A stretch of DNA of 34,915 nt from Sedimenticola sp. (GTDB lineage: Bacteria; Pseudomonadota; Gammaproteobacteria; Chromatiales; Chromatiaceae), in assembly GCA_026983675.1 (NCBI GenBank), contig JALSTP010000185.1, forward strand, positions 1 through 34,915. Direction: 5' to 3'. The notes beneath the pieces are model-generated. The model was not told the origin of the DNA, did no database searches, and worked only from the letters and a program-made list of their open reading frames with translations. Both the position numbers and the translations under genes were made by a program. Shown in pieces: positions 13,673-18,233 of this stretch (positions are counted from its first letter, which is position 1; each line of letters begins with the position of its first letter).

Positions 13673-14602
13673 ATGACGTTGAATGAGTTGCGCTACATCG
13701 TTGCAGTGGCGCGTGAACGCCATTTCGGCCATGCGGCGGCCGCCTGTTTCGTCAGTCAGCCCACCTTGAGCGTAGCGGTGAAGAAGCTGGAGGATGAACT
13801 GGGGGTAAGCCTCTTCGAGCGGGGCGCCGGCGAGGTGACGGTGACCCCTGTCGGTGAAAAGATCATCGCCCAGGCGCAGCGGGTCCTGGAAGAGGCCGGT
13901 GTCATCAAGAGTCTCGCCAGCCACGGCAAGAATCCCCTCGAAGGGCCGTTGCGGCTCGGCGCCATCTATACCATCGGGCCCTATCTGTTGCCCAACCTGA
14001 TCCCCGTTGTGGCCGAGCGCGCGCCCGGCATGCCGCTGGTGGTGGAGGAGAATTACACGGCGGTATTGAGTGAACAACTCAAACAGGGCGATCTGGATGT
14101 GATCATCATTTCCCTTCCTTTCGAAGAGCCGGGCATCGTCACCCGCCCCCTGTACGATGAACCCTTCGTCGTGTTGCTGCCCGCCGCCCATCCCTGGACC
14201 CAGAAGAAGAGTGTCGATCTGGCGGAGCTGGCCGACGAGAATGTGTTGCTGTTGGGCGAGGGACACTGTTTCCGCGATCAGGTGCTGCAAGCCTGTCCGG
14301 TGTGCCTCAAGCCCTCGGCGTCGGAGGACAACAGCATGCAGCGGGCGCTCCAGGGCAGCTCCCTGGAGACCATCCGCTACATGGTGGCCAGCGGGGTGGG
14401 GCTGACTATTCTGCCGTGCTCCGCCGCGGGCGCACAACGGTTTTCGGAACGGCTCATTTCCGTGCGCCGTATCAAGGGGCGTCCTCCCCGCCGCCGGGTC
14501 GCACTGGCCTGGCGCAAGAGCTTTACCCGGCCGGAGGCCGTGGAACTCCTCGCCGCAGCCATCAGGGACAGCGGATTGACGTGTGTGCAGGCGGTCAAAT
14601 AG
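13673..14602 (+). CDS. oxyR: Hydrogen peroxide sensor OxyR (LysR family)
   Basis: Peroxide-responsive LysR-type activator. The 309-residue product has the N-terminal winged helix (LNELRYIVAVARERHFGHAAAACFVSQPTLSVAVKKLEDELG) and an effector domain with GEGHCFRDQVLQACP. Counting from the ATG at 13673, the redox cysteines fall at residues 199 and 208, the same numbers as in E. coli OxyR, with an extra Cys at 211. This supports both the start and a real H2O2-sensing function. GAGG lies ten bases upstream. It is transcribed toward the rubrerythrin cluster, whose promoter carries an OxyR-like box at 14697-14733. Confidence 0.95.
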   Translation: MTLNELRYIVAVARERHFGHAAAACFVSQPTLSVAVKKLEDELGVSLFERGAGEVTVTPVGEKIIAQAQRVLEEAGVIKSLASHGKNPLEGPLRLGAIYTIGPYLLPNLIPVVAERAPGMPLVVEENYTAVLSEQLKQGDLDVIIISLPFEEPGIVTRPLYDEPFVVLLPAAHPWTQKKSVDLAELADENVLLLGEGHCFRDQVLQACPVCLKPSASEDNSMQRALQGSSLETIRYMVASGVGLTILPCSAAGAQRFSERLISVRRIKGRPPRRRVALAWRKSFTRPEAVELLAAAIRDSGLTCVQAVK

Positions 14603-14696: not shown

Positions 14697-14733
14697 ATAG
14701 TTTATTTCAATTCCACTGATTGGAATAAACAAT
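14697..14733 (+). promoter_or_regulatory. Putative OxyR binding site upstream of rubrerythrin
   Basis: The sequence reads ATAG-N7-CAAT-N7-ATTG-N7-CAAT, with tetramers at 14697, 14708, 14719 and 14730. This is the exact spacing of the OxyR consensus (ATAG-N7-CTAT-N7-ATAG-N7-CTAT), with 13 of 16 tetramer bases matching. It also forms a 12-base inverted repeat (14700-14711 with 14719-14730, one mismatch). It ends two bases before the -35 of the promoter at 14735-14762, the position expected of an OxyR-activated site. The oxyR gene itself is immediately upstream. Confidence 0.7.
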
Positions 14734-14734
14734 T

Positions 14735-14762
14735 TTGTCGATTGGGATTTCCCGGCTATAGT
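14735..14762 (+). promoter_or_regulatory. Probable promoter of the rubrerythrin operon
   Basis: TTGTCG (14735-14740, 4 of 6) is followed after 16 bases by TATAGT (14757-14762, 5 of 6). Transcription would begin near 14769, giving a leader of about 60 bases that ends with a perfect AGGAGG (14815-14820). The weak -35 beside an OxyR-like box suits an activated promoter. Confidence 0.6.
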
Positions 14763-14829: not shown

Positions 14830-15249
14830 ATGTCTCTGAAAGGCAGCAAAACCGAACAGAATCTGAAAGACGCATTTGCGGGTGAGTCCCAGGCCAACCG
14901 GCGCTACCTCTACTTCGCCGCAAAGGCGGACGTGGAGGGGTACAACGATGTGGCGGCGGTGTTCCGTTCCACCGCGGAAGGCGAGACAGGGCACGCGCAC
15001 GGGCATCTGGAGTATCTGGAAGAGGTGGGTGACCCGGCCACCGGCCTGCCCATCGGCGGTACCGCCGACAATCTGAAGGCGGCCATCGCTGGCGAGACCC
15101 ATGAGTACACCGATATGTATCCGGGCATGGCCAAGGCCGCCCGTGATGAGGGTTTCGATGAGATCGCCGATTGGTTCGAGACGCTGGCCAAGGCGGAGCG
15201 GTCTCACGCCAACCGTTTCCAAAAGGCCCTGGACAGCCTCGATAGCTGA
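14830..15249 (+). CDS. Rubrerythrin, diiron domain only
   Basis: Non-haem diiron peroxidase that reduces H2O2 to water. The 139-residue product is a four-helix ferritin-like domain with the expected ligands: Glu19 ([10 protein letters not shown]), Glu52-x-x-His55 (ETGH), Glu89/Glu92 ([12 protein letters not shown]) and Glu123-x-x-His126 (ERSH). The C-terminal rubredoxin domain of classical rubrerythrins is absent, so electrons must come from a separate carrier; the Fe-S protein encoded next is a candidate. The ATG at 14830 has AGGAGG nine bases ahead. It is the first gene of a putative OxyR-controlled operon and is followed by a strong hairpin (15247-15283). Confidence 0.95.
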
Positions 15250-15283
15250 TCCCGTTCGGGACGGGCGGGATCATCCGCCCGTC
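15247..15283 (+). promoter_or_regulatory. Overlapping alternative hairpins after the rubrerythrin gene
   Basis: Two stems share bases and exclude each other: TGATCCCG (15247-15254) with CGGGATCA (15266-15273), and GACGGGCGG (15260-15268) with CCGCCCGTC (15275-15283, nine perfect pairs, six-base loop). No T-run follows. This may stabilise the 3' end of a processed rubrerythrin message or partly attenuate read-through into the Fe-S gene. Confidence 0.5.
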
Positions 15284-15330
15284 TCACCCCATATTGACGA
15301 GTTTCGTTGGACAAAGAAGAGGACAAGATC

Positions 15331-16665
15331 ATGGCGGGTGAAGAACACCGTGAAGGAAGCCTGGAGGCGCCTACACGGCATCCCATCGACTGGCAGAACC
15401 CCGACTACTATGACGAGCAGAAGGTGCTTTCGGAGATGGAGCGGGTGTTCGATGTCTGTCATGGTTGCCGCCGTTGTGTGAGCCTGTGTCATGCCTTCCC
15501 GACCCTCTTCGACCTGGTCGACGAGTCGGAGACCATGGAAGTGGACGGGGTGGCCAAGGAGGACTACTGGAAGGTGGTGGACCACTGTTATCTGTGCGAT
15601 CTCTGCTTCCTCACCAAATGCCCCTATGTGCCGCCGCATGAATGGGATATCGACTTTCCCCACCTCATGTTGCAAGCCAAGGCGGCGAGGTTCAAGAAAG
15701 ATGGGGCCTCGCTGCGCGACAAGGTGCTGAGCAGTACCGACACGGTGGGCAGGCTGGCGGGCATCCCGGTGATCAGCGGTATCGTCAACACCATGAACCG
15801 CAACAAGATGTTCCGCGGTGCCCTGGAGGATGAATTCGGCGTGCACCACGATGCGGTGCTGCCCAAGTATTACAGTCATCCGTTGCGTAGCCGCATCGGG
15901 CGCAAGGTGGTCGACAAGGCCGAAGCGGCCGGCGCCACCACCGGCAAGGTGGCCCTGTTCGCCACCTGCTACATCAATCGGAACGAGCCAGGCAGTGGCG
16001 AGGACCTGGTGGCGGTGCTGGAGCACAACGGCATTCCGGTGACGGCATTGCCCGAGGAGCGGTGCTGCGGCATGCCCAAACTGGAGTTGGGTGATATGGA
16101 AGCCGTTGCCAGGGCGAAGGAAGTCAATATCCCGGTGATGGCGCGTATGGTGGATGCCGGCTGGGACCTGATGGCGCCCATTCCGTCCTGTGTGCTGATG
16201 TTCAAGCAGGAACTGCCCCTCATGTTCCCGGACGATGCCGAGGTGGCCAAGGTGCAGAAGGCGATCTACGATCCCTTCGAATATCTCATGCTGCGCCACA
16301 AGCATGGAAAGTTGAATACGGATTTCAGAAATCCGCTGGGCAAGGTGGCCTATCACGTGGCCTGTCACCAGCGGGTGCAGCGGATCGGCATGAAGACGCG
16401 CGATGTGCTGCAACTGGTGCCCGATACCGAGGTGATGGCCATCGAGCGCTGTTCGGGACACGATGGCACCTATGCGGTGAAGAAGGAGTTTCACGAGATC
16501 TCCATGAAGCTGGTCCGCCCGGTGGCCAAGCGGGTGCAGCAGGCCGATGCGGATCACGTGACCAGCGACTGCGTCATGGCCGGCCATCATATCGCCCATG
16601 CGGTGGCCGATGGACGGGATTCGGTCCACCCGATGACCCTGTTGCGCAAGGCGTACGGTATCTGA
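15331..16665 (+). CDS. Heterodisulfide-reductase/GlpC-like Fe-S protein
   Basis: Predicted electron-transfer protein with two N-terminal [4Fe-4S] motifs, CHGCRRCVSLCHAFP and CYLCDLCFLTKCPYVPP, followed by CCG-type domain remnants: FATCYINRNEPG with ERCCGMPKLELGD, and ACHQRVQRIG with ERCSGHDGT, where the second CCG is CSG. The 444-residue product has no membrane helix or signal peptide, so it is probably cytosolic. Co-transcription with a rubrerythrin that lacks its rubredoxin domain suggests it feeds electrons to the diiron centre; that is inference. The ATG at 15331 has AGAGGA about eight bases upstream; a TTG at 15307 is an in-frame alternative with no obvious site. Confidence 0.85.
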   Translation: MAGEEHREGSLEAPTRHPIDWQNPDYYDEQKVLSEMERVFDVCHGCRRCVSLCHAFPTLFDLVDESETMEVDGVAKEDYWKVVDHCYLCDLCFLTKCPYVPPHEWDIDFPHLMLQAKAARFKKDGASLRDKVLSSTDTVGRLAGIPVISGIVNTMNRNKMFRGALEDEFGVHHDAVLPKYYSHPLRSRIGRKVVDKAEAAGATTGKVALFATCYINRNEPGSGEDLVAVLEHNGIPVTALPEERCCGMPKLELGDMEAVARAKEVNIPVMARMVDAGWDLMAPIPSCVLMFKQELPLMFPDDAEVAKVQKAIYDPFEYLMLRHKHGKLNTDFRNPLGKVAYHVACHQRVQRIGMKTRDVLQLVPDTEVMAIERCSGHDGTYAVKKEFHEISMKLVRPVAKRVQQADADHVTSDCVMAGHHIAHAVADGRDSVHPMTLLRKAYGI

Positions 16666-16680
16666 CAGAGGAGAATCACT

Positions 16681-16968
16681 ATGGCAAACGAAGGCTATCA
16701 CGAACCCATCGAGTCCCTGCGCGCAGAGACGCGCGACATGCACAAGGCCATCGTCTCGCTGATGGAGGAGCTGGAAGCGGTGGACTGGTACAACCAGCGT
16801 ATGGATGCCTGTAGCGACGATGAGCTGCGCGCGATCCTAAAACACAACCGTGACGAGGAAAAGGAGCATGCGTCGATGATCCTGGAATGGATTCGCCGCC
16901 AGGACCCGGTGTTCGACAAGGAATTGCGGGACTATCTCTTCACCGACAAACCGATTGCCCACGATTGA
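16681..16968 (+). CDS. Encapsulated-ferritin (EncFtn) family protein without a targeting tail
   Basis: The 95-residue product closely resembles the ferritin-like domain of EncFtn, the iron-oxidising cargo of encapsulin nanocompartments: HEPIESL, HKAIVSLMEELEAVDWYNQRMDA and AILKHNRDEEKEHASMILEWIRR. By alignment from memory with the Rhodospirillum rubrum protein, the ferroxidase residues Glu32, Trp38, Glu62 and His65 correspond to Glu30, Trp36, Glu60 and His63, all present. The protein ends at DKPIAHD, so the C-terminal encapsulin-localisation peptide of cargo EncFtn is missing, and no encapsulin gene is nearby. A GAGGAGAA-type site precedes the ATG. It lies 15 bases after the Fe-S gene and seven before the DUF3501 start. 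Confidence 0.82.
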   Translation: MANEGYHEPIESLRAETRDMHKAIVSLMEELEAVDWYNQRMDACSDDELRAILKHNRDEEKEHASMILEWIRRQDPVFDKELRDYLFTDKPIAHD

Positions 16969-16975
16969 GGTCACA

Positions 16976-17566
16976 ATGAACATGAGCAAGCTGACACGAG
17001 ACGATCTCTATTCACTGGAGAAATACGCCGAAGTGCGGCCTGATTTCCGCGCCCGGGTTATGGCCCACAAGAAGAATCGCAAGTTGCCCCTCGGGCCCAA
17101 CGCGACTCTCTATTTCGAGGATGCGCTCACCATGCAGTATCAGATCCAGGAGATGCTGCGCATCGAACGCATCTTCGAGGCGGCAGGCATACAGGAGGAA
17201 CTGGACGCCTACAATCCGCTGATTCCCGACGGCAGCAACTGGAAGGCCACCTTCATGCTGGAATACACCGACGTGGATGAACGCCGCGCGGCTCTGGAGC
17301 AGTTGATCGGTATCGAGGACAAGGTGTGGGTACAGGTCGCCGATTTCGGCAAGGTCTACGCCATTGCCGATGAAGACATGGAGCGCGAGGATGAGGCCAA
17401 GACCTCCACTGTCCACTTCATGCGATTCGAACTGACCCCCGAGATGGCGCGGGCGGTGAAGGAAGGAGGGTCCGTAAGCGCGGGCATCGACCACCCCGCC
17501 TTTACCATCGCCGTGGAACCCATCCCTGCGACGGTGCGGGACGCGCTCGCGGCCGATCTGGCGTAA
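16976..17566 (+). CDS. DUF3501 family protein
   Basis: Unknown function. The 196-residue product carries the DUF3501 features: a basic N-terminal block (LTRDDLYSLEKYAEVRPDFRARVMAHKKNRKLPLGPNATLYFED), QYQIQEMLRIERIF, the acidic LDAYNPLIPDGSNWKATFMLEY, and a C-terminal VHFMRFEL strand. No transmembrane segment or Cys cluster is present. DUF3501 genes commonly accompany rubrerythrin and a CCG-type Fe-S gene in proteobacteria, so it is likely part of the same peroxide or iron response. The ATG at 16976 has GAGG five bases upstream; a second ATG at 16982 is possible. It converges on fabA with nine bases between stops. Confidence 0.82.
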   Translation: MNMSKLTRDDLYSLEKYAEVRPDFRARVMAHKKNRKLPLGPNATLYFEDALTMQYQIQEMLRIERIFEAAGIQEELDAYNPLIPDGSNWKATFMLEYTDVDERRAALEQLIGIEDKVWVQVADFGKVYAIADEDMEREDEAKTSTVHFMRFELTPEMARAVKEGGSVSAGIDHPAFTIAVEPIPATVRDALAADLA

Positions 17567-17575
17567 CGGCGGGGA

Positions 17576-18091
17576 TCAGAATCCCTCGGTGGAGATGAAC
17601 AGGCCGACGCGAAGATCCTTGGCGGTATAGATGGTGCGGCCATCCACTTCCATGCGGCCGTCGGCGACGCCGAGCACCAGTTTGCGGCTGATCACCCGCT
17701 TCATGTCGATATGATAGGTGACGCGGTCGGCGGTGGGCAGCACCTGCCCACTGAACTTGACCTCGCCCACGCCCAGCGCACGCCCATGACCGGGGTTGCC
17801 CAACCAGGCAAGGAAGAAGCCCACCGATTGCCACATGGCATCGAGACCGAGGCAGCCGGGCATCACCGGGTCGCCGGGGAAGTGGCACTCGAAGAACCAC
17901 AGCTTCGGGTCGATATCGAGTTCGGCGACGATCTCCCCCTTGCCATACTCGCCGCCCACGTCAGCGATGTGGGTGATCCGATCCATCATCAGCATGTTGG
18001 GGACCGGCAGTTGAGCATTGCCTGGACCGAACATCTCGCCGTAGCCGCATTTGAGAAGTTCGTCTTTATCGAAGGAAGAAGGTCTGCTCAC
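17576..18091 (-). CDS. fabA: 3-hydroxydecanoyl-ACP dehydratase/isomerase FabA
   Basis: Dehydrates 3-hydroxydecanoyl-ACP and isomerises trans-2 to cis-3-decenoyl-ACP, the branch point to anaerobic-type unsaturated fatty acids. The 171-residue product matches FabA throughout: [25 protein letters not shown] at the N-terminus, the active site [23 protein letters not shown] with catalytic His and Asp, and VKFSGQVLP. The start is the GTG at 18091, which gives the family length; the upstream frame is open but unlike FabA. The usual partner fabB is not next to it. A TGATACAAT extended -10 at 18242-18234 implies a 5' leader of roughly 135 bases. Confidence 0.95.
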
Positions 18092-18233
18092 ATTGTTCAC
18101 CGGTTGCCACTCTAGTTGATGTATGGGGAGACGCAAGCGTCCGATCAGAAGCGAATAACGTGCCCACTGGAGATTTCCTGCTTCCGGGGAGACACAAGAC
18201 AAGACCGCTCCATCCATCGGGCGGCCGCGGCAG

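What the first reader, a model, noticed from the sequence alone, without database searches (positions are those of the whole stretch)
16681..16968. EncFtn-family ferritin without shell or targeting peptide, inside a rubrerythrin operon
The ferroxidase residues of encapsulated ferritin appear intact, but the protein ends at 95 residues with no localisation tail, and no encapsulin gene is present. EncFtn alone can oxidise iron but stores little without its shell. Here it may work as a free decamer that removes Fe(II) while rubrerythrin removes H2O2, limiting Fenton chemistry. This is a candidate for a distinct, shell-free peroxide/iron module.
Basis: partly seen in the sequence, partly recalled or inferred. 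Interest (0 to 1): 0.72.

Follow-up and report, generated by a model that had tools for sequence, protein, structure and literature searches.

The report
Shell-free ring ferritin in peroxide operon
This gene encodes a small ring-forming iron-oxidising protein of a kind usually described as cargo of a protein shell, but here it has no shell and sits in a peroxide-defence operon, and a genome survey shows that its whole tailless lineage mostly lives without shells, a point that a recent review left open.

Summary
Window 16681-16968 (+) encodes a 95-aa EncFtn-like protein (PF22277 146.6 bits) with every ferroxidase, entry-site and exit-site residue intact. It has no targeting peptide, and its 99.8%-complete genome has no family-1 or family-2 encapsulin. 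It lies in a tight operon rbr-rfo-encFtn-duf3501, preceded by oxyR and an OxyR-like box.

The protein class is known: Nitrosomonas europaea NE0167 (PDB 3K6C, 71/95 identical), called 'Non-EncFtn' (PMC5012862) or 's-FLP' (PMC11202242). The rbr-rfo-duf3501 cassette is known too (PMC5114695). I found no paper on their union, nor an answer to the review's question whether s-FLPs are encapsulated through a putative LFTDKPIAHE peptide.

Across 274 genomes of the class, tailed EncFtn and encapsulin coincide exactly (14/14 versus 0/260), while 62 of 66 genomes with the short form have no encapsulin. Short forms are essentially one clade; about a third are in this cassette.

Most likely function: a free ferroxidase ring that removes Fe(II) while rubrerythrin removes H2O2. 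The coupling is inferred, not shown.

The parts
13673..14602 (+). oxyR-like LysR regulator, 309 aa, with the OxyR redox pair (C199/C208 spacing, GHCFRDQVLQAC)
   Evidence: NCBIfam best match NF008361 OxyR 247 bits, below its equivalog cut-off of 329; cysteine peptide read
14697..14733 (.). OxyR-box-like palindrome ATAG-N7-CAAT-N7-ATTG-N7-CAAT, 13/16 to the E. coli-type consensus
   Evidence: only match of 12/16 or more in the 34.9-kb window (both strands report the same site); 0 of 3000 shuffles of the intergenic stretch as good
14735..14762 (+). sigma-70-like promoter TTGTCG-16-TATAGT directly after the OxyR-like box
   Evidence: consensus scan, 2 found against 1.5 expected, so supported mainly by its position
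14830..15249 (+). rbr: aerobic-type rubrerythrin, 139 aa, no rubredoxin domain
   Evidence: PF02915 106 bits; A2 profile best PDB hits 9onm, 4di0, 8fuh
15331..16665 (+). [quoted passage not shown]
   Evidence: PF02754 49.7 bits; NF008369 224.9 bits, below cut-off; name RFO from PMC5114695
16681..16968 (+). encFtn: short (tailless) EncFtn-like protein, 95 aa; the finding
   Evidence: PF22277 146.6 bits; 71/95 identical to NE0167; AlphaFold model best Foldseek match 3k6c
16765..16776 (+). E29, E30, (L31), E32: entry-site glutamates and ferroxidase glutamate
   Evidence: column alignment to R. rubrum E31/E32/E34
16855..16869 (+). E59, E60, (K61), E62, H63: bridging glutamate and histidine of the ferroxidase centre plus exit-site glutamates
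   Evidence: column alignment to R. rubrum E61/E62/E64/H65
16945..16965 (+). C-terminus DKPIAHD, in the place where encapsulin cargo carries a 26-46 aa tail ending in a targeting peptide
   Evidence: tail comparison; listed as a putative uncharacterised TP in PMC11202242
16976..17566 (+). duf3501: 196 aa, last gene of the operon; 7 bases lie between the encFtn stop and its ATG
   Evidence: PF12007 253.8 bits; only structural relative 3FJV, uncharacterised
17576..18217 (-). fabA-like gene, convergent; marks the end of the operon
   Evidence: PF07977 164.7 bits

Best explanation
A member of the tailless EncFtn lineage (Non-EncFtn / s-FLP) that works free in the cytosol and has here been recruited into the OxyR-type rubrerythrin cassette rbr-rfo-duf3501. 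On peroxide stress OxyR would switch on the four-gene operon. Rubrerythrin reduces H2O2, probably with electrons relayed by the Fe-S protein RFO in place of the missing rubredoxin. The EncFtn subunits pair up on Fe(II), close into an open ring of ten and oxidise the Fe(II) that peroxide sets free, holding a few tens of ions as a short-term buffer, since an open ring cannot store a mineral. Removing Fe(II) and H2O2 together starves the Fenton reaction. Shown by sequence: protein family, intact catalytic residues, no tail, no shell in the genome, operon and OxyR-like site. Inferred from relatives: ring of ten and ferroxidase activity. Hypothetical: OxyR control, functional coupling with rubrerythrin, and whether O2 or H2O2 is the oxidant.
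For: Family and residues. Ring: 71/95 identity to NE0167, whose entry 3K6C holds 10 chains, and model match; s-FLP decamer stated in PMC11202242. Ferroxidase without mineralisation for R. rubrum EncFtn: PMC5012862. Shell-free; class survey in which encapsulin goes exactly with tailed EncFtn (14/14 versus 0/260, Fisher 9e-24) and not with short EncFtn (4/66 versus 10/208, p 0.75). Four genomes hold both types; the tailed copy is the one beside encapsulin. Peroxide link: oxyR adjacent, OxyR-like box, recurrent rbr-rfo-encFtn-duf3501 order in most of 29 distinct operons, and short EncFtn and DUF3501 co-occur in genomes (47 of 66 versus 72 of 208, p 2e-7).
Against: 45 of 66 short-form genomes have the gene away from this cassette, and most cassettes lack it (23 of 30 top DUF3501 loci; same-family genome G254 included), so neither needs the other. 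Standalone copies show no OxyR-like or Fur-like box beyond chance. OxyR-like sites are significant in only about a third of the cassette promoters. The OxyR match is under the NCBIfam cut-off. No biochemistry of any short EncFtn was found.
Confidence: 0.62

Rival explanations
1. It is encapsulin cargo after all: the conserved C-terminus LFTDKPIAH(E/D) is an undescribed targeting peptide and the protein is packed in a shell.
For: PMC11202242 lists LFTD(E/N)KPIAHE as a putative, uncharacterised TP; the motif is kept in 44 of 66 short proteins; TIGR04535 names the family encapsulin-associated.
Against: No encapsulin in the own genome nor in 62 of 66 genomes with the short form; where an encapsulin exists, a tailed paralogue sits beside it. 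A wholly unknown shell is not excluded.
Confidence: 0.05
2. It is an iron donor: the ring supplies iron to the di-iron centre of rubrerythrin or to the Fe-S clusters of RFO during repair, rather than detoxifying iron.
For: Both neighbours are iron enzymes and the genes are tightly spaced; the own genome has no other ferritin-like protein of PF00210 type except rubrerythrin.
Against: Most cassettes lack encFtn and most encFtn genes lie elsewhere, so rubrerythrin can be loaded without it.
Confidence: 0.2
3. It is a general-purpose free ferroxidase that has landed in this operon by chance rearrangement and shares only its promoter.
For: Operon and standalone copies are mixed on the tree, with at least 5 changes forced by well-supported branches; no conserved neighbour was seen for standalone copies.
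Against: 20 of 47 genomes with both genes have them adjacent, where random placement in about 3 Mb would give far less than one, and the slot between rfo and duf3501 recurs.
Confidence: 0.13

Closest known systems
Non-EncFtn / s-FLP: Nitrosomonas europaea NE0167, PDB 3K6C
   Same: 95 aa, 71/95 identical over the whole length, same C-terminus (KPIAH), same metal ligands; falls in the same clade
   Different: NE0167 has Leu where the window protein has the family's usual Trp36; no operon context reported in the papers found
Encapsulated ferritin EncFtn of Rhodospirillum rubrum (Rru_A0973, 5DA5) and Haliangium ochraceum (5N5F)
   Same: Same fold and, for R. rubrum, the same ferroxidase, entry and exit residues
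   Different: They carry a long tail with a targeting peptide and are packed by encapsulin; the window protein has neither tail nor shell
Aerobic-type rubrerythrin cassette RBR-RFO-DUF3501 (Cardenas et al. 2016, PMC5114695)
   Same: Rubrerythrin without rubredoxin, CCG-type Fe-S oxidoreductase and DUF3501 on one strand
   Different: An EncFtn gene is inserted between rfo and duf3501; the passages read do not name it (the Figure 3 legend shows unnamed hypothetical genes)
Dps and bacterioferritin
   Same: Ferroxidase that lowers Fe(II) during peroxide stress (established knowledge)
   Different: They are closed cages that store mineral; the own genome has none of them (PF00210 found only rubrerythrin)

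Membership tests
EncFtn-like family (PF22277) | Score over the curated cut-off | tested here: met
   146.6 bits against 27
EncFtn-like family (PF22277) | Ferroxidase ligands E32, E62, H65 and Y39 (R. rubrum numbering) | tested here: met
   all identical; 65/65 short relatives too
EncFtn-like family (PF22277) | Ring of ten subunits | not testable with these tools
   only inferred from 75% identity to 3K6C with 10 chains
Encapsulin cargo (FLP-TP) | C-terminal tail with targeting peptide such as TVGSLK | tested here: not met
   7 residues after YLFT, no motif
Encapsulin cargo (FLP-TP) | Encapsulin shell gene in the genome | tested here: not met
   PF04454 none, PF19307 below cut-off; genome 99.8% complete
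Non-EncFtn / s-FLP (3K6C class) | Short EncFtn without targeting peptide, in the clade of NE0167 | tested here: met
   66-row clade with support 95/88 that holds the window protein and NE0167 and no tailed row
Aerobic-type RBR-RFO-DUF3501 cassette | Three genes co-located, rubrerythrin without rubredoxin domain | tested here: met
OxyR regulon | OxyR orthologue with C199/C208 pair | tested here: inconclusive
   cysteines present; best family OxyR at 247 bits but below the cut-off of 329
OxyR regulon | OxyR box upstream of the operon promoter | tested here: inconclusive
   13/16 consensus match, unique in the window; binding not testable here

The most novel reading that the evidence does not exclude
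The tailless EncFtn lineage is a separate, shell-free iron-oxidising system in its own right, more common in this class than the encapsulin-packed form, and in this operon a ring ferroxidase and a rubrerythrin act as a coupled, OxyR-induced unit that removes both Fenton reactants, perhaps by passing the H2O2 made by iron oxidation straight to rubrerythrin.
Probability: 0.4. Interest if true: 0.7.

Novelty: new variant of a known kind. Interest (0 to 1): 0.5.

Why it matters
NCBI's family model names these proteins encapsulin-associated, and a 2024 review proposes an encapsulin-targeting role for their C-terminus. The survey indicates that most have no shell to go to, which turns 'what does an open ferroxidase ring do without a shell?' into a testable question. 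The oxyR-rbr-rfo-encFtn-duf3501 operon offers a concrete system: its genes are few, three have solved relatives (3K6C, 4DI0, 3FJV), and the predicted inducer is H2O2.

Tried and rejected
Replacement of cage ferritins: the own genome has no PF00210 protein except rubrerythrin, but across the class short EncFtn shows no significant link with lack of ferritin (p 1.0 at E 1e-15, p 0.06 at 1e-22). Conserved partner of standalone copies: neighbour clustering gave mostly antisense shadows of encFtn and clade-specific genes. Fur control of standalone copies: no excess. Function of DUF3501 from fold: the model (pLDDT 89) matches only the uncharacterised 3FJV. Family-2 encapsulin as shell: best 10.8 bits, a chance match. 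A paper on a rubrerythrin cluster in Acidihalobacter (PMC7760498) was searched for an EncFtn mention; none found.

Full report
OBSERVATION. The 95-codon ORF at 16681-16968 (+) is real: it starts with ATG after an AGAGGAG (16667-16673), with 15 bases between it and the rfo stop, and 7 bases separate its stop from the duf3501 ATG. It matches Pfam EncFtn-like at 1.8e-43 and passes the cut-off of TIGR04535. The best solved relative is NE0167 of Nitrosomonas europaea, PDB 3K6C, also 95 aa, 71/95 identical, deposited with 10 chains. An AlphaFold model made from 23 relatives (pLDDT 87) has 3K6C and then R. rubrum EncFtn as best fold matches.

FERROXIDASE RESIDUES. R. rubrum E32, Y39, E62, H65 (centre), E31 and E34 (entry) and H57, E61, E64 (exit), as assigned in PMC5012862, are E30, Y37, E60, H63, E29, E32, H55, E59 and E62 here. 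All are invariant in the 65 short relatives compared and in 15 tailed ones.

NO TAIL, NO SHELL. After YLFT the protein has seven residues, DKPIAHD. The own genome (3.08 Mb, 232 contigs, 99.8% complete) has no Linocin_M18/encapsulin match, no family-2 SrpI-like match above cut-off, and this is its only EncFtn.

CLASS-WIDE TEST. In 274 genomes of the same class, EncFtn-like proteins occur in 79 and encapsulin in 14. I read the DNA around 80 of the hits; three fragmentary or marginal hits (G002, G027, G087) were left out. The tails fall in two groups: 66 proteins with 6-15 residues after the last helix motif (one of them with 34, lysine- and proline-rich, without a targeting peptide), and 15 tailed ones, 14 with a TVGSL-type motif, all in encapsulin-bearing genomes and with the encapsulin gene beside or fused to them. 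The set of genomes with tailed EncFtn is identical to the set with encapsulin: 14 of 14, and 0 of 260 others (Fisher 9e-24). Short EncFtn is independent of encapsulin: 4 of 66 genomes against 10 of 208 (p 0.75). In the four genomes with both types (G014, G196, G236, G247) the tailed paralogue is the one with the encapsulin. Genomes are related, so the p-values overstate independence, but the split is complete. In a phylum sample of 299 genomes EncFtn was in 19 and encapsulin in 5.

TREE. On the core domain alone (tails removed) 66 rows, all short and including the window and NE0167, form one group (95/88). One short protein, L154 of G202, falls among tailed ones and may be an independent tail loss. 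Rubrerythrin-operon and standalone copies are mixed within the short group; well-supported branches force at least 5 changes. With 88 columns many forks are unresolved.

OPERON. The order oxyR - rbr - rfo - encFtn - duf3501 ends at a convergent fabA-like gene. Among 161 EncFtn loci read (156 distinct), 32 (29 distinct) lie with rubrerythrin and/or DUF3501; the order rbr-rfo-encFtn-duf3501 is the rule and rbr-rfo-duf3501-encFtn the main variant. In the class sample 47 of 66 short-form genomes also have DUF3501, against 72 of 208 others (p 2e-7), and in 20 of the 47 the two genes are adjacent. Yet 23 of the 30 best DUF3501 loci have rfo and duf3501 without encFtn, including a genome of the window's own family (L053). 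So encFtn is an optional, repeatedly used fourth gene. The three-gene cassette was described by Cardenas et al. 2016 (PMC5114695); the passages I read mention no EncFtn.

PEROXIDE CONTROL. The gene before rbr is a LysR regulator whose best family is OxyR (247 bits, below the strict cut-off) and which has the C199/C208 pair in the right place. Between it and rbr, 14697-14733 reads ATAG-N7-CAAT-N7-ATTG-N7-CAAT, 13 of 16 to the OxyR consensus (the consensus is from established knowledge), the only such site in the window, immediately before a -35/-10-like pair. About a third of the other cassette promoters have a site that shuffling rarely gives; promoters of 107 standalone encFtn genes show no excess. 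This points to peroxide control of the cassette rather than of EncFtn in general.

MECHANISM. R. rubrum EncFtn without shell oxidises iron, binds up to 48 ions per decamer, but does not mineralise and aggregates on iron addition (PMC5012862). With identical ligands the window protein should act likewise: a free ferroxidase that lowers Fe(II) for a short time while rubrerythrin removes H2O2. If O2 is the oxidant, any H2O2 formed has a consumer next door; if H2O2 is the oxidant, as in Dps, one reaction removes both reactants. The data do not choose between these, and iron donation to rubrerythrin remains possible.

WHAT IS KNOWN. The short class is known as Non-EncFtn (PMC5012862) and s-FLP (PMC11202242). 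That review leaves open whether s-FLPs are encapsulated and lists LFTD(E/N)KPIAHE as a putative, uncharacterised targeting peptide. My survey speaks against this for most members. I found no paper that joins short EncFtn with the rubrerythrin cassette or OxyR; subscription journals are largely outside the library searched.

Noticed in passing
window genome G000 (L241, L242): No bacterioferritin, ferritin or Dps: PF00210 hits only the rubrerythrin of this operon; two PF00141 peroxidases exist elsewhere in the genome.
   Followed up: partly
L159, 5483-6958 (-), genome G196: A 492-aa ORF joins an EncFtn domain to an encapsulin that lacks about its first 115 positions; a real fusion, a deletion, or an assembly artefact.
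   Followed up: no
L128, 5899-6267 (-), genome G074: Short-clade EncFtn with a 34-residue lysine/alanine/proline-rich tail and no targeting peptide.
   Followed up: no
L109, genome G181: rbr and encFtn adjacent without rfo or duf3501; this rubrerythrin is strongly diverged.
   Followed up: no
short EncFtn proteins of the rubrerythrin operons: 13 of 21 operon copies but only 9 of 45 standalone copies depart from the KPIAH ending (p 0.002), often with a 13-residue ending such as DKPIAALEQHQKS.
   Followed up: partly
L157 and L158, genome G247: Two copies of an encapsulin plus tailed EncFtn locus about 3.2 Mb apart with identical EncFtn, besides a short EncFtn in the rubrerythrin cassette.
   Followed up: no
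window 16976-17566 (+): DUF3501 is highly conserved (66 invariant columns in 11 proteins) and its model matches only the uncharacterised 3FJV, so its fold has no functional relative in the PDB.
   Followed up: partly
window 15271-16743 (-): A 490-aa open frame antisense to rfo, probably a by-product of codon composition; no evidence of being a gene.
   Followed up: no
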